Assembly (NCBI RefSeq): GCF_029870955.1
Contig: NZ_PGFQ01000001.1
Span: 1,426,001-1,490,000, forward strand
DNA: 64,000 nucleotides
Origin: Sulfitobacter faviae
GTDB taxonomy: Bacteria > Pseudomonadota > Alphaproteobacteria > Rhodobacterales > Rhodobacteraceae
Direction: 5' to 3'
A program made the position numbers and the translations under genes. Under the pieces are notes generated by a model, which was not told the DNA's origin, did no database searches, and worked only from the letters and a program-made list of their open reading frames with translations. Shown in pieces: positions 27,792 through 41,379 of this stretch (its first letter is position 1; every line of letters begins with the position of its first letter).

Positions 27792-28671
27792 TTACACCCA
27801 CTTCGCCATCGGCGGCAGGCTCATCAGAACCGCATCCGGATCATGCCCCGTCTCCAGACCAAACTTCGTCCCCCGGTCATAGACGAGGTTATACTCGGCA
27901 TAGATCCCCCGGTGGCGCAGTTGCACGTCCTTGTCGTCCATGTCCCACGGAATCTCGCGCCGTTTGTCGACCACGGGCACATAGGCGGGCAGGAACGCGC
28001 GGCCCACATCCTGTGTCAGCGCGAAATCCGCCTCCCAATCGCCGCTGTTGCGGTCATCGTAAAAGATGCCACCCACACCCCGCGCGCGTTTGCGATGGGG
28101 ATGTAGAAATACTCATCCGCCCAAGCCTTCAACTCATCATAGAGCGTGGCCCCATGCGGATCGCAGGCGGCCTTCATCTCGGCATGGAAATGGTCGGTGT
28201 CCTCGTCATACTCGATACAAGGGTTCAAATCCGCACCGCCGCCAAACCACCATGCATGGGGGTCCAGAACATGCGGGTGTTCATATGCACCGCTGGCACA
28301 TGTGGGTTTTGCATATGCGCGACCAGACTGATGCCCGAGGCCCAAAAGCGCGGTTCTTCGGCCATGCCGGGCAACCCCTTGCGCGCGGCCATGGCGGCCT
28401 GCGCCCGCTCGCCCAACTCGCCGTAGACGGTGGAGATATTCACGCCCACCTTCTCGAACACACGCCCCCCGCGCATGACGGACATTTCACCGCCACCGGC
28501 GTCCGATCCATCGGGGGCAGTACGGGTGGTGTTGCTGACCACGAAACGCCCGGCCTCTTCCTCGCCCACATGACGCGCTTCGATGTGGTGAAACGCCTGA
28601 ACGATGTCATCGCGAAGCTTGCGGAACCAATCCGCCGCGCGTGTCTTTTGATCTTGCATGTCGTCGGTCAT
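27792..28671 (-). CDS. hemF: Oxygen-dependent coproporphyrinogen III oxidase, frameshifted
   Basis: Aerobic enzyme converting coproporphyrinogen to protoporphyrinogen IX, about 294 residues when repaired. [56 protein letters not shown] and [21 protein letters not shown] are family signatures. One C (coding strand) is missing in the run at 28258-28262 (giving [12 protein letters not shown]) and one at 28097-28100 (giving [17 protein letters not shown]). Such an essential gene being broken twice supports sequence error rather than decay. It converges on hemE and is followed by idi upstream on the same strand. Confidence 0.93.
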
Positions 28672-29885: not shown

Positions 29886-29907
29886 TTCGCGCATTCAGCG
29901 CAATGCG

Positions 29908-29934
29908 AAAGGGGGCCATCTGGCCCCCTTTTTT
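29908..29934. terminator. Terminator between cytochrome c and the Fe-ADH gene
   Basis: AAAGGGGGCCA, loop TC, TGGCCCCCTTTTTT. The stem is symmetric with A and T runs on either side, so it can serve both converging transcripts. Confidence 0.9.
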
Positions 29935-29942
29935 GTTTTGGA

Positions 29943-31088
29943 TCAGAAGCAGTCGCGCAGCAGTTGCGTGACGTTCTCTTTGTTAAGCTCAATGGGGTTG
30001 CCACCGCAGCTGGGGTCTTGCAGGGCCGAGGCCACCAGCGCGTCGATGTCGGGGTCGGTCACCCCAAGGGCAGTCAGCGAGCTGGGGATGTTCAACTCTT
30101 CGTTCAGCTTGCCGACGAAATCGTAGAACCCGTCAGAGCCGCCCACGATATCAAGATAGGCCGCCGCCTTGGCCAGCCGCTCCTCGATTGCGGGGCGGTT
30201 CATGCGCAGAACCGGCTGCATGACCACGGCGTTGGTGGTGCCGTGATGCGTGTGATGCACCGCGCCGATCGGGTGGCTGATGGCATGGATCGCACCCAGC
30301 CCCTTTTGGAACGCCGTAGCGCCCATGGCGGCTGCGGACATCATATGACCCCGCGCCTCAAGATCACTGCCATCGGCATAGGCGCGGGGCAGGTATTCCT
30401 TGACCAGACGCATCCCTTCCAGCGCCATGCCTTGGCTCATCGGGTGGTAATGCGGCGAGCAGAAGGCTTCGAGACAATGGGCGAAAGCATCCATCCCAGT
30501 GCCTGCCGTGATCATCGGCGGCATGCCGACGGTCAGTTCTGGGTCGCAGATCACGACGGCGGGGAGCATCTTGGGGTGGAAGATGATCTTTTTCTCATGG
30601 GTCTGGGAATTGGTGATGACGCTGGCACGCCCCACTTCCGAGCCTGTGCCGGCGGTCGTCGGCACGGCCACGATGGGCGCGATGCCGCCGGCGTCGGCGC
30701 GGGTCCACCAATCGCCGATATCCTCGAAATCCCACAGGGGGCGGGTTTGGCCCGCCATGAAGGCGATGACCTTGCCCAGATCGAGACCGGAGCCACCGCC
30801 AAAGGCGATCACACCGTCATGGCCGCCGTCGCGGTAGACCTTGATGCCCGCCTCGGCGTTCATCTCGGTCGGGTTCGGGTCAACGTCTGAGAACATCGCG
30901 CGGCCCAGACCTTCGGCCTCCATCAGGTCCAGCGTGGACTGGGTGATGGGCAGATAGGCCAGCCCCTTGTCGGTGACCAGCAGCGGCTTCTTGATACCCG
31001 CGGCGGCGCAGGCCTCGGCAATCTCTTTAATCCGGCCCGCGCCGAAACGGATGGCGGTAGGGTAAGACCAATTGGCAGTCAGGGACAT
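29943..31088 (-). CDS. Iron-containing alcohol dehydrogenase
   Basis: A 381-residue NAD(P)-dependent dehydrogenase of the group III Fe-ADH family. FGGGSGLDLGKVIAFM is the nucleotide-binding region and VPTTAGTGSEVGRASVI the first signature. The metal ligands are in GTGMDAFAHCLEAF (Asp, His) and HAISHPIGAVHHTHHG (two His). It is the last gene of the TRAP-ligase operon, starting three bases after the aldehyde dehydrogenase. In context it would oxidise the hydroxyl of a gamma-glutamylated amino alcohol to the aldehyde. Confidence 0.9.
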   Translation of the reverse strand: MSLTANWSYPTAIRFGAGRIKEIAEACAAAGIKKPLLVTDKGLAYLPITQSTLDLMEAEGLGRAMFSDVDPNPTEMNAEAGIKVYRDGGHDGVIAFGGGSGLDLGKVIAFMAGQTRPLWDFEDIGDWWTRADAGGIAPIVAVPTTAGTGSEVGRASVITNSQTHEKKIIFHPKMLPAVVICDPELTVGMPPMITAGTGMDAFAHCLEAFCSPHYHPMSQGMALEGMRLVKEYLPRAYADGSDLEARGHMMSAAAMGATAFQKGLGAIHAISHPIGAVHHTHHGTTNAVVMQPVLRMNRPAIEERLAKAAAYLDIVGGSDGFYDFVGKLNEELNIPSSLTALGVTDPDIDALVASALQDPSCGGNPIELNKENVTQLLRDCF

Positions 31089-31091
31089 GTC

Positions 31092-32465
31092 TCAGGCTTT
31101 CTTGAGGTGGTAGGATTTGGGGCGTGTCAGCGCGTGATAGCCCAGTTCAGACAGGCCCGCGCCGCGCCCGGTTTGCTTGCAGCCGGTCCAGCACAGCGCC
31201 GGGTCCAGATAGTCGGCACGGTTCATGAAGACGGTGCCGGTTTCCAACCGCTGGCCGATGGCCTCGGCGGCCTCGGCATCGGCGGTAAAGATCGCGGCGC
31301 TGAGGCCAAACTGGCTGTCGTTCATCAGCGCAATGGCTTCTTCGTCGTCCTTGACCGGCATGATGCCGACAACGGGGCCGAAGCTTTCGTCACGCATGAC
31401 GCGCATCTCATGGGTCACATCGGTGAGCACCTGCGGGGTCAAATAGGCACCGCCATCGTCGGCGGGCATTCTATCGATGTGCGCCTTGGCACCAGCGGCG
31501 ACGGCCTCATCAATCTGCGCGCGAACCTCATTGGCGAAACGCACATTGGCCATCGGGCCGAGCGTCGTGGCCTGATCCAGCGGATTGCCGAGGTTGAGGT
31601 TATTCACCCATGCCACGGCTTTCTCGACAAAGGCGTCATAGAGGCTTTCGTGCACATAGATCCGTTCGATCCCGCAGCAGCACTGGCCCGCGTTGAACAT
31701 CGCCCCGTCCATCACGCCATCAACCGCCGCGTCGAGATTGGCATCGGCCCGGACATAGGCGGGGTCTTTGCCGCCCAACTCGGTCGCGACGCCGGTGAAA
31801 GTGCCCGCCGCCGCGCGCTCCATCGCCTGACCACCGCCGACAGAGCCGGTGAAGTTGACGAAATCAAAGGCGTTGTCGGCGATCAACGCCGAGGTGGTCT
31901 CATGGCTCAGCACGACGTTCTGAAACACATCCTCGGACACGCCGGCGGCGCGGTAGGCATCGGCGAGGTGTTCACCGACCAGAATGGTCTGCGAGGCATG
32001 CTTCAGGATCACCGAATTGCCCGCGATCAGCGCAGGCGCGATGGTGTTGTTCGCGGTCATATAGGGGTAGTTCCACGGTGCCACGACGAAAACCACGCCA
32101 TGCGGCTCACGCATAATCTTGCGGCTGAAGGCGGCGCTGTCCTCGATCACCTTGGGCGCCAGCGCATCGGCGGCGATCTTGGCCATGTGGCTGGTGCGCT
32201 CCTGCAGCCCGCCGAACTCACCGCCGTAGCGCACCGGGCGGCCCATCTGATGGGCCAGTTCCTCGGTCATCCGGTCGGTGGAATTCTCAATCTCTTTCAG
32301 CGCGGCCATCACCAGATCGACACGCTCCTGCAAGGGGCGCGCAGCCCATGCCTTTTGCGCGCGGCGCGCGCGGGCGACAGCCTCTTGCGCTGCTTCCGTG
32401 CTCAGGGTTTCGCGCTCCGCATAGACCGAACCGTCAATCGGAGAGATACATTTTACCGTCGTCAT
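31092..32465 (-). CDS. Aldehyde dehydrogenase
   Basis: A 457-residue NAD(P)-dependent enzyme. APWNYPYMTANNTIAPALIAGN is the cofactor site, FTGSVGGG the dinucleotide loop, Glu229 in TELGGKDP the general base, and Cys263 in NAGQCCCGIERIY the nucleophile. It sits between the glutamine-synthetase-like ligase (two-base gap) and the Fe-ADH (three-base gap). The expected reaction here is oxidation of a gamma-glutamylamino-aldehyde to the acid, as PuuC does in the Puu pathway; this is inferred from context. Confidence 0.9.
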   Translation of the reverse strand: MTTVKCISPIDGSVYAERETLSTEAAQEAVARARRAQKAWAARPLQERVDLVMAALKEIENSTDRMTEELAHQMGRPVRYGGEFGGLQERTSHMAKIAADALAPKVIEDSAAFSRKIMREPHGVVFVVAPWNYPYMTANNTIAPALIAGNSVILKHASQTILVGEHLADAYRAAGVSEDVFQNVVLSHETTSALIADNAFDFVNFTGSVGGGQAMERAAAGTFTGVATELGGKDPAYVRADANLDAAVDGVMDGAMFNAGQCCCGIERIYVHESLYDAFVEKAVAWVNNLNLGNPLDQATTLGPMANVRFANEVRAQIDEAVAAGAKAHIDRMPADDGGAYLTPQVLTDVTHEMRVMRDESFGPVVGIMPVKDDEEAIALMNDSQFGLSAAIFTADAEAAEAIGQRLETGTVFMNRADYLDPALCWTGCKQTGRGAGLSELGYHALTRPKSYHLKKA

Positions 32466-32467
32466 TC

Positions 32468-33832
32468 TCAGGCCCTTTCAAAGCCGCGGGCGATTTCCCA
32501 ATCGGTCACCACCCGGTCATATTCTTCCTGCTCCCATTCCGCCGCGCGGGTGTAATGGGTCACTACATCGTCGCCCAAGACCTCGCGCAGGAACGTCGAG
32601 CCGCGCAGGGTCTCGGTCGCTGCCCGCAGGGTCTGGGGGATATCGACAGCGTCGGACTCGCCATAAGCATCGCCGCGTGTGGGCGGGGCAAGCTCCATCT
32701 TGTCTTCGATCCCTTTGATTCCGGCAGCCAGCATGACCGTCTGCGCCAGATAAGGGTTTAGGTCCGATCCGCCAATACGGCATTCGACCCGCACGCCCTT
32801 TGTCCCTGCCCCGCAGAGGCGGAAACCCGCGGTGCGGTTGTCGACGGACCAGACGGTCTTGGTCGGGGCGAAGGTGCCTTTGGCGAAGCGCTTGTAGCTG
32901 TTCACATAGGGGGCGAGGAAATAGGTATATTCCGGCGCATAGGCGATCAGACCGGCCATATAGTGGCGCATCAGGTCGGACATGCCCAACTCGCCCTCGC
33001 TATCAAAGAAAGCCGCTTCGCCGTCTTTCCACAGCGACTGATGGACGTGGCTGGAAGAGCCGACGCGGTCCTTGTGCCACTTGGGCAGGAAGCTTGCCGC
33101 ATGACCCTGCTGCCAAGCGATCTCCTTGACCGCATGTTTGGCAATCGTGTGATAATCGGCGCAATCAAGCGTCTTTGAATAGCGGATGTTGAGCTCTTCC
33201 TGACCGGCCTCGGCCTCGCCTTTGGAGTTCTCAATCGGCAGACCGGCGGCGAAGAGATGGTTGCGCAGCGGGCGCATCACGTTCTCTTCCTTGGTGGTCT
33301 GAAGGATGTTGTAGTCTTCGTTATAGCCGCTGATCGGCGTGAGGTCGCGGTAGCCGCCCTTGCGGATCGCGTCAAAGCTCTGCTCGAAAAGGAAAAACTC
33401 CAGCTCGGTCGCCATCATCGCGTCGAAACCCAGTTCCTTCAGCCGCGCGATCTGTTTCTTCAGCATGGCGCGCGGGGAATGCGGCACCGGCTGGTGGGTG
33501 TCGTGATCCAGCACGTCGCAGAGCACCATCACCGTGCCCTCGAGCCACGGCACCGGGCGGATCGTGTCGAGGTCCGGCTGCATCACATAGTCGCCGTAAC
33601 CCGTCTCCCACGAGGTGGAGGCAAAGCCTTCGGGCGTGGCCATCTCAAGGTCGGTGGCCAGCAGGTAGTTGCAGCAATGGGTTTCTTTGTAAGAGGTCTC
33701 GACGAAGTTGACGGCATGGAAGCGCTTGCCCATCAACCGGCCTTGCATATCCACAAGGCAAGCAAGAACCGTATCGACGGATCCCTCTTTGACCAGTTTT
33801 TTCAGCGCGTCGAATGTCAGTGTGCCGGGCAT
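32468..33832 (-). CDS. Glutamine-synthetase-like ligase (gamma-glutamylamide synthetase type)
   Basis: A 454-residue GlnT/PuuA/IpuC-type member. ATP and metal ligands are kept: ATELEFFLFE (Glu143, Glu145), ENSKGEAEAGQEELN (residues 201-215), SSSHVHQSLW (residues 249-258), NSYKRF, and GVRVECRIGGSDLNPY. It lacks the adenylylation Tyr loop of GlnA-I, and it is embedded in a catabolic operon, so ammonia assimilation is unlikely. Relatives attach glutamate to putrescine, ethanolamine or alaninol. Flanked by the TRAP binding protein and the aldehyde dehydrogenase. Confidence 0.88.
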   Translation of the reverse strand: MPGTLTFDALKKLVKEGSVDTVLACLVDMQGRLMGKRFHAVNFVETSYKETHCCNYLLATDLEMATPEGFASTSWETGYGDYVMQPDLDTIRPVPWLEGTVMVLCDVLDHDTHQPVPHSPRAMLKKQIARLKELGFDAMMATELEFFLFEQSFDAIRKGGYRDLTPISGYNEDYNILQTTKEENVMRPLRNHLFAAGLPIENSKGEAEAGQEELNIRYSKTLDCADYHTIAKHAVKEIAWQQGHAASFLPKWHKDRVGSSSHVHQSLWKDGEAAFFDSEGELGMSDLMRHYMAGLIAYAPEYTYFLAPYVNSYKRFAKGTFAPTKTVWSVDNRTAGFRLCGAGTKGVRVECRIGGSDLNPYLAQTVMLAAGIKGIEDKMELAPPTRGDAYGESDAVDIPQTLRAATETLRGSTFLREVLGDDVVTHYTRAAEWEQEEYDRVVTDWEIARGFERA

Positions 33833-33857
33833 GTTCTGTCCACTTCAGGGGTAAGGC

Positions 33858-33880
33858 GGGGGCGCAGGCAGCGCGCCCCC
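33858..33880 (-). other. Intercistronic stem-loop between the TRAP binding protein and ligase genes
   Basis: GGGGGCGC (33858-33865) and GCGCCCCC (33873-33880) form an 8-bp GC stem with a 7-base loop, and no T-run follows on the minus strand. Such structures after binding-protein genes usually protect the upstream mRNA or cause partial termination, so the binding protein is made in excess. Confidence 0.6.
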
Positions 33881-33890
33881 GGTTGTCGGT

Positions 33891-34928
33891 TCAGCCGTTG
33901 GTGTAGGGCGGACCGGCTTTGTTGATGACTTCGTTATAGTCGCGGAAGATTTGCACAATCTTGGCGTGCACTTCGCCTTCTTCGGCGATCTCTGTCCAGA
34001 AGTCCTTGGCCGCGTTTTCAACCTCGGCCCATTCGTCGGCAGGCACGGTGCTGAGCTTGAGCTTGTCGCCCTGCGCCCGCAGACGCGCCTCGCCGCCCCA
34101 GTACCACTGGTTGCGGTAGGTGTGGCCTGCTTCGATCCCCGCCATGACCAACTGTTTGAGGTGATCCGGCAAATCGGCCCACTGCTGCTGGTTGACGAAG
34201 AACGACCCGATCCAAGCACCTGAGATGTTGTTGGTCAGGAAGTAGTCGGTCACATCGGCCCAGCCGACGGTGTAGTCCTCGGTGATGCCGGACCACGCCA
34301 TGCCGTCGAGCTCGCCTGTTTGCACGGCGACCTCGGCGTCCTCGTAGGGAATGTTCACCGGCACCACGCCGAACTTCGACAGGAAGCGGCCCGCGGTGGG
34401 GAAGGTGTAGAGCTTCAGACCGTCCAGATCGGCGACCGATTTGATCTCTTTGGTGGTGTTGAAGTTGCAGGGGTCTTGGCCCGCAGCCGACAGCCATTCA
34501 ACGCCGACCTTGGCGTATTCCTCTTTCCAGATTTCGGCCAAACCGTACTGGTTGAACAGCACCGGCACGTCGAGGATGTGCTTGGTGGCAAAGGGGAAGT
34601 AACCGCCGAATTGTTGCAGCGGCGTGGGCGAGGCCATGGAGTCGTCATCGGAATGCACCATGTCGATGGTGCCGCGCTGCATGGCTTGGAACAGCTCACC
34701 GGTGGGCACGATCTGGTCGGCGTAGAACAGTTCGATCTCCATCTCGCCATTGGCGGCGGCATTGATGTAATCGACCGCGGGTTTGGTCACCTGCTCACCC
34801 AGAGCGGCGCCGGCATAGGTCTGCATGCGCCATTTGATCGGCGCTTGGGCATGCACGATAGAGGGCGCGGCGAGGGCCGCAGGGGCGGCGACGGCGGCCC
34901 CGGATAGAAACTTTCTGCGAGTGGTCAT
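33891..34928 (-). CDS. TRAP transporter substrate-binding protein, DctP type, with Tat signal
   Basis: A 345-residue periplasmic receptor. The start at 34928 has AAAGGAGA six bases upstream. The signal has the twin-arginine pattern TTRRKFLSG followed by a hydrophobic Ala-rich stretch and VHAQA, so export folded through Tat is likely. The mature part shows WRMQTYAG, YADQIVPTGELFQAMQRGTIDM and PDHLKQLV, typical of DctP. DctP proteins with this Tat/TTRRKFL type bind carboxylates or amines; the ligand here should carry an amine or alcohol if the operon model holds. Confidence 0.9.
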   Translation of the reverse strand: MTTRRKFLSGAAVAAPAALAAPSIVHAQAPIKWRMQTYAGAALGEQVTKPAVDYINAAANGEMEIELFYADQIVPTGELFQAMQRGTIDMVHSDDDSMASPTPLQQFGGYFPFATKHILDVPVLFNQYGLAEIWKEEYAKVGVEWLSAAGQDPCNFNTTKEIKSVADLDGLKLYTFPTAGRFLSKFGVVPVNIPYEDAEVAVQTGELDGMAWSGITEDYTVGWADVTDYFLTNNISGAWIGSFFVNQQQWADLPDHLKQLVMAGIEAGHTYRNQWYWGGEARLRAQGDKLKLSTVPADEWAEVENAAKDFWTEIAEEGEVHAKIVQIFRDYNEVINKAGPPYTNG

Positions 34929-34978
34929 ACGTCTCTCCTTTGTTGAAATGTCAGGCCGTCTTTGCGCGGCTCTCATTG

Positions 34979-36304
34979 TTATTTGTCGTAGATGTAATCG
35001 GGCAGCCATGTCGCGATCTCGGGGAAGACCATGACAAGTATCAGCGCCAAGACCATCACCAGCACGAAGGGCGTGATCGACGCATAGATGTCGCGCAGGG
35101 TGATCTCGGGCGGGGCCATGGCGCGCATGAGGAACAGGTTATAGCCGAAGGGCGGCGTCATATAGGCGATCTGCGTGGTGATCGTGTAAAGGATACCATA
35201 CCAGATCAGATCAAAGCCCAGCGCACCGACCAAGGGCACATAGAGCGGCGCCACGATCACCAGCATCGCCGTATCATCTAGGAAGGTGCCCATGATGATG
35301 AAGCTAAGCTGCATCATGATCAGGATCATCCAGGGGCTGAGGTTCATCTTTTCGGTGAACAGGCTCTCAATCGCCTTCACCGCGCCCAGCCCGTCAAAGA
35401 CCGCGCCAAAGGCGAGGGCGGCGAGGATGATCCACATGAACATGCAGGTGATGCCCAAGGTGTTGCGCACGGAGTTCTCGAAAACTTCGCGGGTCATGCG
35501 GCCCTTGAGAACGGCAGCAAAAAATGCCGCCGCAGCCCCGATGGCCGAGCTTTCGACCAAGCTGGTCCACCCGTTGACGAAAGGCACCATCATCACCGCA
35601 AAGATCACCAGCGGCAGGATGCCCGCCCGCAGCAGACGCAGTTTCTCGGCACGGGGAATGTCGCGATCCTCGGCCGAGAGGATGGGACCAAGTTCGGGAT
35701 TCATCCGGCAGCGGATGACGATATAGGCGATGAACATCGCTGCCATCATCAACCCCGGGATGACCCCGGCAAGCCACAACTGCCCCACCGGCTGCCGCGC
35801 GATCATCGCGTAGAGCACCAGCACCACCGAAGGCGGCACGAGGATGCCAAGGCTCGACCCCGCTTGGATCACCCCCGTGACCATCCTTTTGTCATAGCCG
35901 CGTTTCAGCAGTTCCGGCAGCGCGATGGTCGACCCAATCGCCATGCCCGCCACGCTGAGCCCATTCATCGCCGAGATCAGCACCATCAGGCCAATCGTGC
36001 CAATCGCCAGCCCGCCGCGCACCCCGCCCATCCAGACGTGGAACATGCGGTAAAGGTCATCGGCGATGCGGCTTTCGCTGAGGACATAGCCCATGAAGAT
36101 GAACATCGGCAGCGTCAGCAGCGGATACCATTTCATCAGCTTCATCGCGGCGGCGAAACCGATGTCATAGCCGCCCTTGTCGCCCCAGAGCAGCAGCGCC
36201 GAAACCACGGCGATAAAGCCGATGGCGCCAAACACCCGCTGGCCGGTCAGTAGCATCAGCATCATTGACGAGAACATCAATGTCGCAATCATTTCATAGG
36301 ACAT
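34979..36304 (-). CDS. TRAP transporter large permease, DctM type
   Basis: A 441-residue protein of about 12 membrane segments. LPMFIFMGYVLSESRIADDLYRMFHVWMGGVRGGLAIGTI, SAMNGLSVAGMAIGSTIALPEL and GSSLGILVPPSVVLVLYAM are standard DctM signatures, with MTPPFGYNLFLMRAM near the C-terminus. The start overlaps the small permease stop by one base (TGATG). With DctQ and DctP it makes a sodium-driven secondary importer. Confidence 0.94.
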   Translation of the reverse strand: MSYEMIATLMFSSMMLMLLTGQRVFGAIGFIAVVSALLLWGDKGGYDIGFAAAMKLMKWYPLLTLPMFIFMGYVLSESRIADDLYRMFHVWMGGVRGGLAIGTIGLMVLISAMNGLSVAGMAIGSTIALPELLKRGYDKRMVTGVIQAGSSLGILVPPSVVLVLYAMIARQPVGQLWLAGVIPGLMMAAMFIAYIVIRCRMNPELGPILSAEDRDIPRAEKLRLLRAGILPLVIFAVMMVPFVNGWTSLVESSAIGAAAAFFAAVLKGRMTREVFENSVRNTLGITCMFMWIILAALAFGAVFDGLGAVKAIESLFTEKMNLSPWMILIMMQLSFIIMGTFLDDTAMLVIVAPLYVPLVGALGFDLIWYGILYTITTQIAYMTPPFGYNLFLMRAMAPPEITLRDIYASITPFVLVMVLALILVMVFPEIATWLPDYIYDK

Positions 36305-36870
36305 CAGATGGCCTCACCCTTGAGCCGCAGCACGTCTTTCGCGAGCTCGGACAGACATTGCAGCAGCATCAGAAAGATGCCGACGATCATCACGACCTTG
36401 ATCGGCCAGAGATACGGGCGCCATGCGGAACTGGATTGCTCCATATGGCCAACCTCTTCACTACCGGTGATCAAGCCACCGAAAAAGCTGAACGGCTCTG
36501 TCCCCCAGTAGCCCAGCGAATAGGCGGTAGAGCTTACCGCCCCATAGAGCAGCACGCAGAGATAGAAGATCAGGAAGAAAACGGTGAATAGGTCAAACCA
36601 TGCTTTGCGGCGCAGCGACCAATCGCCATAGAGCAGATCCATCCGCACGTTCGACCCCAGTTGGATCGAATAGGGACCGCCCAAGATGTAATAGCCCACC
36701 ATGACAAACTGCGCCATTTCCAGCGTCCAAAGCGAGGGGACGAAGAAGGCTTTGCTGACGGTGGACCACAACAGCACCCCCATCAGGACAAATATGCCAT
36801 ACATCATGATCCGCCCGATCCGCCGGTTCATCGCGTCGATGCCCCGGATATAGCCCCGGATGAACCTCAT
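36304..36870 (-). CDS. TRAP transporter small permease, DctQ type
   Basis: About 188 residues with four membrane segments, starting MRFIRGYIRGIDAMNRR. FVMVGYYILGGPYSIQLGSNVRMDLLYGDW is the family-conserved stretch. The ATG at 36870 has GGAGGT nearby and overlaps the stop of the amidohydrolase-like gene (ATGA). A longer in-frame start at 36918 is less likely because it runs into the upstream coding region. Confidence 0.9.
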   Translation of the reverse strand: MRFIRGYIRGIDAMNRRIGRIMMYGIFVLMGVLLWSTVSKAFFVPSLWTLEMAQFVMVGYYILGGPYSIQLGSNVRMDLLYGDWSLRRKAWFDLFTVFFLIFYLCVLLYGAVSSTAYSLGYWGTEPFSFFGGLITGSEEVGHMEQSSSAWRPYLWPIKVVMIVGIFLMLLQCLSELAKDVLRLKGEAI

Positions 36871-37634
36871 GGTTTGACCTCCTCCATCTCGGGCCGAGCC
36901 ATGGCGGCACGGAGCCAATTGCTGATCATCTCGGCCATCTGCCGCTGTTCGGCTTCGGTCGTGATGAGGTCGTTACGGATCTCTAGCATGACATGGGGAT
37001 GACCATGGGCCAGCCCATGCTCTTTCAGCGTATGGGTCACCCCGTCCTGCGGGCCGTAGGGCTCATTTCGTTCGACATTCAGATCCGTGAACTCGGACGC
37101 CACCGCGAGCATCGCATCGGCAAGGCGCGTGTCGCTGTCATGCAGAATGCCGATCTCAACGCTGCGCGGTTTGCCATGGTAGATCGGCGTGAAACTATGC
37201 ACCGTGACGATCGCAGGCGCATTGACCCGTTTGATCGTTGCCGCCAAAGTCTTGCGGAATGGCTCGTAATAGCGCGCCACCCGCTCGGCCCGGCCAGCCT
37301 CATCAAGCGTGGCATTGCCGGGGATCGCGAAAATCTCGCTCTGCGCTGGCATCGCGCCCGGGGCTTCGGGCGGGCGGTTACAATCGTAGACCAGACGCGA
37401 GACGCGCCCCGCCACCAGCACCGCATCCAGATCCTGCGCCATGGCCCGGGCCACGCCCAAGGCACCGGGATCCCAAGCCACATGGCTTTCGCGGGCCGCA
37501 GCATCCAGCCCCAGACCGTCGTAGCAGGCCGGTATCTCACGCGCCGCATGTTCGCAGACCAACACCAGCGGGGCCTGTGCCCCGGCGTTGATCACCTCGA
37601 CGGCTTCATTCGAAAGATCTGACTGTTCTGACAC
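36867..37634 (-). CDS. N-formylglutamate amidohydrolase (FGase) family protein
   Basis: About 255 residues from the GTG at 37634, chosen because GAGGGGG lies six bases upstream; an ATG at 37664 or 37685 is also possible. LVCEHAAREIPACYDGLG, AWDPGALGVARAMAQDLDA, YDCNRPPEAPGAMP and VTVHSFTPIYHGKPR are FGase-family motifs holding the zinc ligands. No other histidine-utilisation gene is present, and this is the first gene of the TRAP-ligase operon. It may therefore hydrolyse a gamma-glutamyl or N-acyl-glutamate intermediate; that is inference. Confidence 0.85.
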   Translation of the reverse strand: MSEQSDLSNEAVEVINAGAQAPLVLVCEHAAREIPACYDGLGLDAAARESHVAWDPGALGVARAMAQDLDAVLVAGRVSRLVYDCNRPPEAPGAMPAQSEIFAIPGNATLDEAGRAERVARYYEPFRKTLAATIKRVNAPAIVTVHSFTPIYHGKPRSVEIGILHDSDTRLADAMLAVASEFTDLNVERNEPYGPQDGVTHTLKEHGLAHGHPHVMLEIRNDLITTEAEQRQMAEMISNWLRAAMARPEMEEVKP

Positions 37635-37689
37635 CCTGTCCCCCTCAGTTAGATCAAACCTCATTCGGGCGGGGGCTTCTGTCAACAGA

Positions 37690-37733
37690 ATAATGTCAAA
37701 TTTATTACAACGCCGTTCAGTTTGTGTTATTAC
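37690..37733. promoter_or_regulatory. AT-rich divergent promoter/operator region of the TRAP-ligase operon and rpiR gene
   Basis: This stretch is far more AT-rich than its surroundings. TTATTAC occurs twice in direct orientation (37702-37708 and 37727-37733, 25 bases apart), and AATAA...TTATT forms a short inverted repeat around 37690-37706. It lies between the GTG of the FGase gene and the ATG of the RpiR gene, making it the likely RpiR operator. Confidence 0.45.
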
Positions 37734-37753
37734 TCGTCAAAAGAGGGGCATCC

Positions 37754-38625
37754 ATGGCTGAACCGACGCTGACCATTTCCGACCGTATCCAGCAAGAACT
37801 GGACCGGCTAACCCGTGCGGAACGGCAACTCGCCCATTCGATTCTGGAAAACTACCCCGCCTCCGGCCTAGGCCCGCTGACGGCGCTGGCGAAGGATGCC
37901 AATGTCTCCACCCCCACCGTGGCGCGGATGGTGCAAAAGCTGGGGTTCAAGGGTTACCCCGAGTTTCAGAACGAGCTGCGCGAAGAGCTCAAGGCCAAGG
38001 CCAAGAACCCCATCGCCAAACATGACAACTGGACCGAAGGCGCGCCCTCGGGCCATGTGTTGAACCGGTTCACCGACGCGGTGATTGACAACATCCGCCA
38101 CACGTTGGGCCAGATCGAGCCTGCCACCTTCGACCGCGCCTGCGCGATGATCGCCGACACCGCGCACCCGCTCTATATCGTGGGGGGCGCATCACCCATG
38201 TGATGGCCGAATATCTGTTCCTCCACGCTCAGATCATCCGCCCACGGGTGACACATATTCAATCCACATCAAACGCTTGGCCGCATTACCTGCTGGACGT
38301 GGGCGAAGGCGATGTCTTCGTCATTTTCGACGTGCGGCGCTATGAGAACAACACGCTGAAACTGGCAGAAATGGCCCATGCGCGGGGGGCCAAGATCATC
38401 CTCTTCACCGATCAATGGCGCTCTCCGGTGCATAGCCTGGCCGATATCTGTTTCTCCAGCCGGATCGTCGCGCCTTCGGCTTGGGACAGCGCGGCGGCCA
38501 CGCTGCTGCTGGTAGAAAGCGTGATCTCGGCCATGCAAGACATCAACTGGGCCGATACGAAGGACCGGGCCGAACGGCTGGAAGACATGTTCGACCAGAC
38601 CCGTTTGTTCCGCAAATTCACCTAA
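37754..38625 (+). CDS. RpiR-family transcriptional regulator, frameshifted
   Basis: About 290 residues when repaired. Residues 1-80 are the RpiR HTH_6 domain (LTRAERQLAHSILENYPASGLGPLTALAKDANVSTPTVARMVQKLGFKGYPEF). Residues 125-275 form a SIS domain, which normally senses a phosphosugar or related metabolite. One G is missing in the run at 38182-38187; adding it gives LYIVGGRITHVMAEYLF. AAGAGGGG precedes the ATG at 37754. It is divergent from the TRAP-ligase operon and is its probable regulator. Confidence 0.88.
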
Positions 38626-39823: not shown

Positions 39824-41379
39824 GTGGAGCAGATCACAACCGGCAGGATCATCATCGTTGGGGCCGGTCTGGGCGCGCTCTATGCCGCGCTTTGTCTTGC
39901 GCCGCGTCCGGTTTTGCTGATCTCGCCCGATCCTCTGGGGTCAGGGGCCAGTTCCGCTTGGGCGCAGGGCGGCGTGGCCGCCGCGATGGCGCAGGCCGAC
40001 AGCCCCGAGGCCCATGCGCTCGACACCATCAAAGCCGGGGCGGGTACGGTCGAGCCGCGCGTCGCCGCCACCGTAACGGATGAGGCCCGCGCCCATATCC
40101 TCACCCTGACCGATTTCGGCACCGCCTTCGACCGCAGCGCCGATGGCGGCTATGTCATGTCGCGCGAGGCGGCGCATAGCTTTGCCCGCGTCGTGCGCGT
40201 GCAGGGCGATCAAGCGGGAGCCGAGATCATGCGCGCCCTGATCGAAAAGGTGCGCGAAACACCCTCGATCCAAGTGCTCGAAGGGGTGCTGGCCCGCGGT
40301 TTGGAAAGTGACGGTACCAAGGTCACCGGGGTCGAGATCGAACTGGCACGGCCCGAAGGCTCCGCCCCCGTGATGCTGCGCGGCGCGGGGTCTTGCTGGC
40401 GGGCGGCGGGTCTGGCGGGCTTTATGCGCTGACCACCAACCCGGCCCGCATTCGCGGGCAGGTGATCGGCATGGCCGCCCGGGCGGGCGCTCTTACTGCC
40501 GATGCGGAATTCGTGCAGTTTCACCCCACCGCCATCGACTGCGGCGAAGACCCCGCCCCCTTGGCGACCGAAGCACTGCGCGGGGCCGGGGCGCATCTGA
40601 TCAATCGCGAAGGCGCGCGTTTTATGGAGGCGGTTCACCCCCTCGCCGAGCTTGCCCCGCGCGATGTCGTGGCCCGCGCCATCTTTGCCCAGACCCAGAC
40701 GGGGCTGCGCCCCATGCTGGACACCCGCGCGGCCTTGGGTGCGGCGGTGCTGACCGACTACCCCGCCGTCGCAGCCGCCTGCGCGCGCAATGGCATCGAC
40801 CCGGTGACCCAGCCCATCCCCGTCGCCGCCGCGGCGCATTACCATATGGGCGGTGTGGCCACGGATGCGCATGGGCGTTCCAGCCTTGCCGGACTGTGGG
40901 TCTGCGGAGAGGCGTCTTCGACCGGGCTGCACGGCGCGAACCGTCTGGCATCCAACGGGCTGCTCGAAGCGCTGGTCTTTGCCCGCCGCGCGGCGCAGGA
41001 CATGCTTGAGGAATGCGAGACGGGCGAGGATGACGCCGTACAACTGCCGGATTTGCCTGCTGGTGAGACACCGAACGAGACCCTCGTCACCCGCCTGCGC
41101 GAAACCATGACCGCAGAGGTCGGCGTGCTGCGGGATGCGGCGGGCTTACAACGCGCCTTGACGGCCATCGCCGAGATTGAAGCGGCGCAACCCGATTGTG
41201 CCCAGTTGCAAAACATGACCGCCACCGCGACGCTCATCGCCGCCGCCGCCCTCGCCCGCCGCGAAAGCCGGGGCGCGCATTGCCGCACGGACTATCCCGA
41301 AACGCTCCCCGAAGCCGCCCGCAGCTTCATGACATTGGCCGAGGCCACGGCCCACCGCTCCAACCCCGAGGACGCCTGA
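39824..41379 (+). CDS. nadB: L-aspartate oxidase, frameshifted
   Basis: FAD enzyme producing iminoaspartate, about 518 residues when repaired. IIIVGAGLGALYAAL is the FAD site; SSAWAQGGVAAAM, REAAHSFARVVRVQGD, FVQFHPTAI and CGEASSTGLHGANRLASNGLLEALVFARRAA are diagnostic. One G is missing at 40387-40390; adding it joins the halves as GVLLAGGGSGGLYALTT. It starts at GTG 39824, eleven bases after nadA, with GAAGG upstream, and stops two bases before nadC. Confidence 0.95.

What the first reader, a model, noticed from the sequence alone, without database searches (positions are those of the whole stretch)
29943..38625. Operon for import, gamma-glutamylation and oxidation of an unknown amino alcohol
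Seen: eight genes with gaps or overlaps of only a few bases. Divergent RpiR/SIS regulator, then FGase-family hydrolase, dctQ, dctM, dctP (Tat signal), glutamine-synthetase-like ligase, aldehyde dehydrogenase, Fe-alcohol dehydrogenase. Known: GlnT/PuuA/IpuC-type ligases cap amines with glutamate before oxidation (putrescine Puu pathway; the alaninol/isopropylamine route of Pseudomonas KIE171). Inferred: an amino alcohol such as ethanolamine or alaninol enters by TRAP, is gamma-glutamylated, its hydroxyl is oxidised to aldehyde and acid, and the FGase-like enzyme releases glutamate plus an amino acid (glycine or alanine). A TRAP-fed gamma-glutamylation pathway with an FGase-type terminal hydrolase is not one I know to be characterised.
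Basis: partly seen in the sequence, partly recalled or inferred. Interest (0 to 1): 0.8.

Follow-up and report, generated by a model that had tools for sequence, protein, structure and literature searches.

The report
Known marine ethanolamine-use operon
This is a marine bacterium's copy of an already described gene set that imports ethanolamine, a membrane-lipid fragment, caps it with glutamate, oxidises it and releases glycine; it is correctly read but ordinary.

Summary
The operon is real and in place: seven co-oriented genes (FGase, dctQ, dctM, dctP, glutamine-synthetase-like ligase, aldehyde dehydrogenase, Fe-alcohol dehydrogenase) and a divergent RpiR/SIS regulator, in a Sulfitobacter-like genome. 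The same eight genes in the same order are published for Phaeobacter sp. MED193 (PMC10132767): five of the proteins rise on phosphorylethanolamine, and EtoX binds ethanolamine with Kd 7.9 uM. The window's DctP matches the ethanolamine-bound structure 4UAB at 486 bits, next chain 78 bits. The full order recurs in 61 of 80 named loci. Additions made here: the regulator reads as two ORFs through a frameshift that none of the compared relatives shares; two other genes in the same 15 kb are broken the same way, so an assembly error is likely. An inverted repeat beside TTGACA, conserved in relatives, is a candidate operator. Verdict: already known, low interest.

The parts
37754..38203 (+). RpiR-family regulator, N-terminal HTH half (ORF ends soon after a frameshift at a G run, 38182-38187)
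   Evidence: PF01418; different frame from the SIS half; G run read; both halves in one open frame in 69 of 69 relatives where both matched
38200..38625 (+). RpiR-family regulator, C-terminal SIS half
   Evidence: PF01380
37680..37709 (-). candidate operator/promoter block: imperfect inverted repeat followed by TTGACA, upstream of FGase
   Evidence: conserved block in the alignment of 24 related intergenic regions plus the window; single match in the window, 0 expected (the pattern was drawn from an alignment that included the window); TTGAC in 85 of 88 relatives' regions (no control for this count)
36867..37634 (-). gamma-glutamylglycine amidohydrolase (GGAH), FGase family
   Evidence: PF05013; one solved relative, 2ODF 'Hypothetical protein Atu2144', 263 bits; start discussed under observation check
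36304..36870 (-). TRAP small permease (EtoV, DctQ)
   Evidence: PF04290; start by three relatives
34979..36304 (-). TRAP large permease (EtoW, DctM)
   Evidence: PF06808
33891..34928 (-). ethanolamine-binding TRAP periplasmic protein (EtoX, DctP) with a twin-arginine-type signal (read from the sequence)
   Evidence: PF03480; 4UAB/4XF5 sequence, 485.6 bits; seven pocket-region residues invariant in 80 of 80 relatives
32468..33832 (-). ethanolamine gamma-glutamylase (ETAGA), glutamine-synthetase-like ligase
   Evidence: PF00120; 5DM3 748 bits, 11zs 593 bits, the other 36 matched chains 195 bits or less
31092..32465 (-). gamma-glutamyl-acetaldehydeamide dehydrogenase (GAADDH), aldehyde dehydrogenase family
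   Evidence: PF00171; Cys262-264 and Glu229 invariant in 67 of 67 matched loci
29943..31088 (-). gamma-glutamylethanolamide dehydrogenase (GETADH), iron-containing alcohol dehydrogenase
   Evidence: PF00465/PF25137; Asp200, His204, His268, His282 invariant in 68 of 68 matched loci
29907..29932 (+). hairpin with T tract between the operon end and the convergent neighbour, possible transcription terminator
   Evidence: 11-pair stem, 7 GC pairs, listed on the + strand (consensus scan only, 12 such sites found against 6.7 expected)

Best explanation
It is the roseobacter ethanolamine-utilisation operon. Ethanolamine enters through the TRAP transporter EtoVWX. The glutamine-synthetase-like ligase joins it to glutamate with ATP, giving gamma-glutamylethanolamide. 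The iron alcohol dehydrogenase and the aldehyde dehydrogenase oxidise the alcohol to the aldehyde and then to gamma-glutamylglycine. The FGase-family hydrolase splits that into glutamate and glycine. A divergent RpiR/SIS regulator controls the operon. Shown in a relative (published): induction of five of the proteins on phosphorylethanolamine and ethanolamine binding by EtoX. Inferred for this genome: every enzymatic step and the regulation.
For: Same eight genes in the same order in Phaeobacter sp. MED193, five of the encoded proteins induced on PE, EtoX Kd 7.9 uM for ethanolamine (PMC10132767 section 9). Window DctP matches 4UAB at 485.6 bits, next chain 78 bits. 4UAB is the ethanolamine complex with an acidic platform residue Glu220 and aromatic walls (PMC12410723 passage); the acid and aromatics that appear to correspond are kept in the window and in 80 of 80 relatives. 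The arginine that selects carboxylates in TRAP proteins is Tyr201 here (alignment to 4yzz; meaning from PMC4646407 passage). Ligase matches 5DM3 at 748 bits and has Phe321 (72 of 72 matched loci) where the genome's own GlnA (L001) has a Glu. Gene order kept in 61 of 80 loci. No EutB homologue in this genome while the E. coli control rings.
Against: No biochemistry on this strain. Ligase and hydrolase substrates are inferred from context; for MED193, in the parts I read, they are annotations supported by induction, not enzyme assays, and the paper's own figure legend says 'predicted' pathways. EtoX in MED193 also rose under phosphate starvation alone. The window's regulator is broken as sequenced. 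Five of 80 EtoX loci have no ligase in the held sequence although their contig continues downstream (L055, L056, L069, L079, L093); all five genomes carry a ligase relative elsewhere, 59-76% identical. Two genomes (L040, L059) have no close relative of the aldehyde dehydrogenase, best 30-31% identity. Two (L071, L078) have no FGase match at all (their held genomes are small, 1.5 and 2.0 Mb).
Confidence: 0.93

Rival explanations
1. The operon mainly serves another short amino alcohol, such as L-alaninol or 1-amino-2-propanol, through the same chemistry, with alanine or a related acid as product.
For: The Csal_0678 sequence has a second structure entry, 4XF5, which I recall as an (S)-2-amino-1-propanol complex (recalled, from no call). 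The KIE171 alaninol route uses the same chemistry (recalled).
Against: The published relative with the same gene order binds ethanolamine with Kd 7.9 uM and is induced by phosphorylethanolamine; aminopropanols are not among the analogues named as tested in the section read.
Confidence: 0.05
2. A TRAP dicarboxylate transporter next to unrelated amine-metabolism genes.
For: Only the generic family names DctQ, DctM, DctP point to it.
Against: The carboxylate-selecting Arg is absent (alignment). The transporter adjoins the ligase in 74 of 80 loci, ligase matched, and the whole operon in 61 of 80.
Confidence: 0.01
3. The regulator is a genuine pseudogene in this strain, so the operon is constitutive (or, if the regulator is an activator, silent).
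For: Two ORFs in different frames.
Against: Not shared by any relative compared. A coproporphyrinogen III oxidase gene and a NadB-like gene in the same 15 kb are also split by frameshifts, which points to assembly indels.
Confidence: 0.12

Closest known systems
Ethanolamine operon of Phaeobacter sp. MED193 (RpiR-GGAH-EtoV-EtoW-EtoX-ETAGA-GAADDH-GETADH, MED193_10021 to 10056; PMC10132767)
   Same: All eight genes, their order by locus tag, and proposed roles.
   Different: The window's regulator is split by a frameshift, probably an assembly error. Sequence identity to MED193 was not measured here.
Chromohalobacter salexigens Csal_0678 ethanolamine binding protein (4UAB, 4XF5) and the C. salexigens / A. 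tumefaciens C58 pathway cited as ref. 32 in PMC10132767
   Same: Binding-protein sequence and ligand-site residues; 5DM3 ligase and Atu2144 (2ODF) hydrolase are the best solved relatives. That 5DM3 comes from C. salexigens is recalled.
   Different: Gene arrangement in those species was not inspected; the original paper is not held under the DOI I tried.
Streptomyces coelicolor GlnA4 ethanolamine pathway (PMC6529630)
   Same: Gamma-glutamylethanolamide synthetase, two dehydrogenations, and a proposed FGase-family gamma-glutamylglycine hydrolase.
   Different: No TRAP transporter is named in its cluster legend; a short-chain dehydrogenase is listed there; regulator EtuRI.
Puu putrescine pathway and Ipu isopropylamine/alaninol pathway (recalled)
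   Same: Glutamate capping before oxidation.
   Different: Different substrates and terminal hydrolases (recalled). The window ligase scores 195 bits against the NCBIfam GGputSyn cut-off of 650.

Membership tests
EtoVWX / gamma-glutamylation ethanolamine operon | Eight genes in the order RpiR (divergent), GGAH, EtoV, EtoW, EtoX, ETAGA, GAADDH, GETADH | tested here: met
   against the locus-tag order in PMC10132767; the regulator is interrupted, and strand in MED193 was not seen (figure not held)
EtoX ethanolamine-binding TRAP protein | Clusters with Csal_0678 rather than other TRAP SBPs | tested here: met
   485.6 bits to 4UAB versus 78 bits for the next of 51 matched sequences; no tree built
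EtoX ethanolamine-binding TRAP protein | Ligand-site acid (Glu220 in Csal_0678) and aromatics kept; carboxylate-selecting Arg absent | tested here: met
   E244, W239, Y246, W250, F203 kept and Tyr201 at the Arg column, 80 of 80 loci (numbering from the ORF start at 35009). That Glu220 corresponds to E244 rests on an assumed numbering offset; which aromatics line the site is assumed too
EtoX ethanolamine-binding TRAP protein | Binds ethanolamine | not testable with these tools
   needs protein
Ethanolamine gamma-glutamylase | Glutamine-synthetase fold with catalytic residues kept but not a true ammonia ligase | tested here: met
   below the NCBIfam GlnA cut-off, 240 of 429 bits; E206, E213, H262, E350 kept and Phe321 at the column of a GlnA Glu (residue roles recalled). 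Activity not tested
N-formylglutamate deformylase HutG | TIGR02017 score at or above 278.75 | tested here: not met
   27.6 bits; so an FGase-family relative, not HutG
EutBC ethanolamine ammonia-lyase route | EutB in the genome | tested here: not met
   0 matches to PF06751 in the genome, E. coli control positive

The most novel reading that the evidence does not exclude
The SIS-domain RpiR regulator, a class usually taken to sense phosphosugars (recalled), here senses a gamma-glutamyl intermediate or ethanolamine itself, and acts at the conserved TGTGA-N8-TCACA-like repeat just upstream of the TTGACA box. The window's own clade uses a diverged form of that site.
Probability: 0.35. Interest if true: 0.35.

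Novelty: already known. Interest (0 to 1): 0.12.

Why it matters
It shows that the published marine ethanolamine pathway is widespread in this genus: a strong EtoX match (434 bits or more) in 47 of 58 genomes searched, the window's own included. It links phospholipid turnover to nitrogen and carbon supply. What remains open, as far as the papers seen here go, is the regulator's ligand and operator and direct assays of the enzyme steps; the candidate operator makes the first directly testable.

Tried and rejected
Plain dicarboxylate transport: rejected on the lost Arg and the 4UAB match. HutG and Puu membership: scores far below cut-offs. A variant pathway without the ligase, suggested by EtoX loci L055, L056, L069, L079 and L093: weakened, since all five genomes hold a ligase relative at 59-76% identity elsewhere; in the four whose surroundings I compared it lies near one or more of the ADH, ALDH or FGase genes (the surroundings of L159 were not looked at). 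Regulator decay as biology: considered, thought less likely than assembly error. Sigma-70 promoter scan: 2 promoter-like sites against 2.7 expected and none in the regulator/FGase gap, so it gave nothing. The TGTGA/TCACA form is only weakly matched in the window itself (2 mismatches, spacer 6); 15.6% of shuffled regions reach a best of 2 mismatches. Of the 88 relatives' regions, 59 have 2 or more mismatches to it. The Csal_0678 paper was sought by one DOI and is not held. No structure prediction and no search of the large protein database was run.

Full report
What is there. Seven genes on the minus strand (29943-37634) face a divergent RpiR/SIS regulator (37754-38625). The nine ORFs scanned hit the expected Pfam families. 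Junctions are tight at four of six places; dctM/dctP and dctP/ligase are separated by 50 and 58 bases if dctP starts at 34928. The closest named records carrying the DctP are Sulfitobacter dubius, S. maritimus and S. delicatus, each 99% identical over the best segment.

What it is. The binding protein matches the Csal_0678 sequence (4UAB, 4XF5) at 485.6 bits, with 78 bits for the next of 51 matched sequences. PMC12410723 (passages) states that 4UAB is the ethanolamine complex, held by Glu220 and aromatic side chains. The window keeps a Glu in what appears to be the matching motif (E244, counted from 35009) and the aromatics W239, Y246, W250 and F203, invariant in 80 of 80 relatives. At the column where 4yzz carries the arginine typical of TRAP proteins, the window has tyrosine. 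PMC4646407 (passage) links loss of that arginine to the ethanolamine ligand of Csal_0678. The ligase matches solved chain 5DM3 at 748 bits and 11zs at 593 bits, the other 36 matched chains at 195 bits or less. It keeps residues that I recall as metal and substrate ligands, but a Glu present in the genome's own GlnA is phenylalanine (I recall that Glu as the flap residue). The hydrolase matches one solved chain, Atu2144 (2ODF), at 263 bits, and is not HutG.

It is published. PMC10132767 (section 9 read whole, other passages by find) describes MED193_10021 to 10056: RpiR, gamma-glutamylglycine amidohydrolase, EtoV, EtoW, EtoX, ethanolamine gamma-glutamylase, gamma-glutamylacetylaldehydeamide dehydrogenase and gamma-glutamylethanolamide dehydrogenase. 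By locus tag that is the window's order, gene for gene. Five of the proteins rise on phosphorylethanolamine (EtoX also under phosphate starvation), and EtoX binds ethanolamine with Kd 7.9 uM. It cites earlier work in C. salexigens and A. tumefaciens. PMC6529630 (passages) proposed the same chemistry in Streptomyces, including an FGase-family last step. Five literature searches were made.

How common. All pieces in the same order and orientation: 61 of the 80 loci kept from genome contigs, and 18 of 20 loci fetched from the same genus. Of the 19 incomplete loci, eight (L018, L021, L034, L057, L062, L070, L080, L083) appear to miss only genes beyond the end of a short contig. The other eleven are L040 and L059 (no ALDH between ligase and ADH), L052, L055, L056, L069, L071, L078, L079, L084 and L093. 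Of these, L055, L056, L069, L079 and L093 have no ligase by the transporter; their five genomes hold a ligase relative elsewhere at 59-76% identity. In L040 and L059 no close ALDH relative is found genome-wide, best 30-31%, though both have the FGase. Four more genomes searched for the FGase (those of L052, L055, L079, L084) give only 31-39% matches. So the terminal steps are less fixed than the transporter and ligase. Strong EtoX matches (434 bits or more) were counted in 47 of 58 genus genomes, own included. Thirteen of those carry a diverged EtoX at 54-68% identity. Twelve of the thirteen were fetched. Ten are complete, with DctM 90-92% and ligase 74-84%. All twelve keep E244, W239, Y246 and W250; one (L158) has Val at 203 and lacks RpiR and FGase nearby.

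The regulator. The two halves are in different frames, the break lying at a run of six G at 38182-38187. Intact copies exist in 69 of 69 relatives where both halves matched and 18 of 18 loci of a second, overlapping set. In the same 15 kb, a coproporphyrinogen III oxidase gene (three frames) and a NadB-like flavoprotein gene beside nadA (two frames) are also broken relative to each of three relatives L014, L015 and L016 (family scan on L014's copies only, the name NadB by family and position). Protein identity of the regulator halves to L014 is 98-99%. Assembly indels are the simplest reading.

Control region. An alignment of 24 related intergenic regions (of 70 available in that call) plus the window shows one block, an inverted repeat followed by TTGAC. 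Among 88 relatives' regions, from two overlapping sets, 29 have TGTGA-spacer-TCACA with at most one mismatch, 27 of these with spacer 8, against about 1% of mononucleotide shuffles; 59 have two or more mismatches. TTGAC occurs in 85 of 88. The window and its closest relatives carry a diverged repeat at 37680-37709. This is a candidate only; related sequences are not independent.

Verdict. The genome lacks EutB, so this operon is probably its ethanolamine route; other routes were not searched for.

Noticed in passing
27795-28671 (-) and 39824-41373 (+): Coproporphyrinogen III oxidase gene read in three frames and a NadB-like gene read in two, relative to intact copies in L014, L015 and L016; suggests indel errors in this assembly.
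   Followed up: partly
L147-L157, DctP: A diverged EtoX (62-65% identity) sits inside an otherwise better conserved operon (DctM 90-92%), as if the binding-protein gene alone had been exchanged; most pocket residues kept. No tree was built.
   Followed up: partly
L056:264-3153: RpiR-FGase-EtoVWX without ligase, next to a GMC oxidoreductase and a DAO-family flavoprotein gene; a ligase relative lies elsewhere beside an Fe-ADH.
   Followed up: partly
L040:7517-10030 and L059:8114-10743: Ligase followed directly by Fe-ADH with no aldehyde dehydrogenase between, and only 30-31% relatives of it elsewhere in the genomes: the aldehyde step may be done by an unrelated ALDH or be lost. L155 also shows no ALDH match.
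   Followed up: partly
L071 and L078: Rhodobacteraceae records AG-390-B07 and AH-326-E22 with transporter, ligase, ALDH and ADH but no RpiR or FGase nearby, and no FGase match anywhere in the held genomes, which are small (about 1.5 and 2.0 Mb).
   Followed up: partly
G000:C2:5964-9629 and 204798-208463: Two identical-scoring pairs of other TRAP binding-protein genes on contig C2 about 199 kb apart, which may mean that contig C2 repeats itself at its ends.
   Followed up: no
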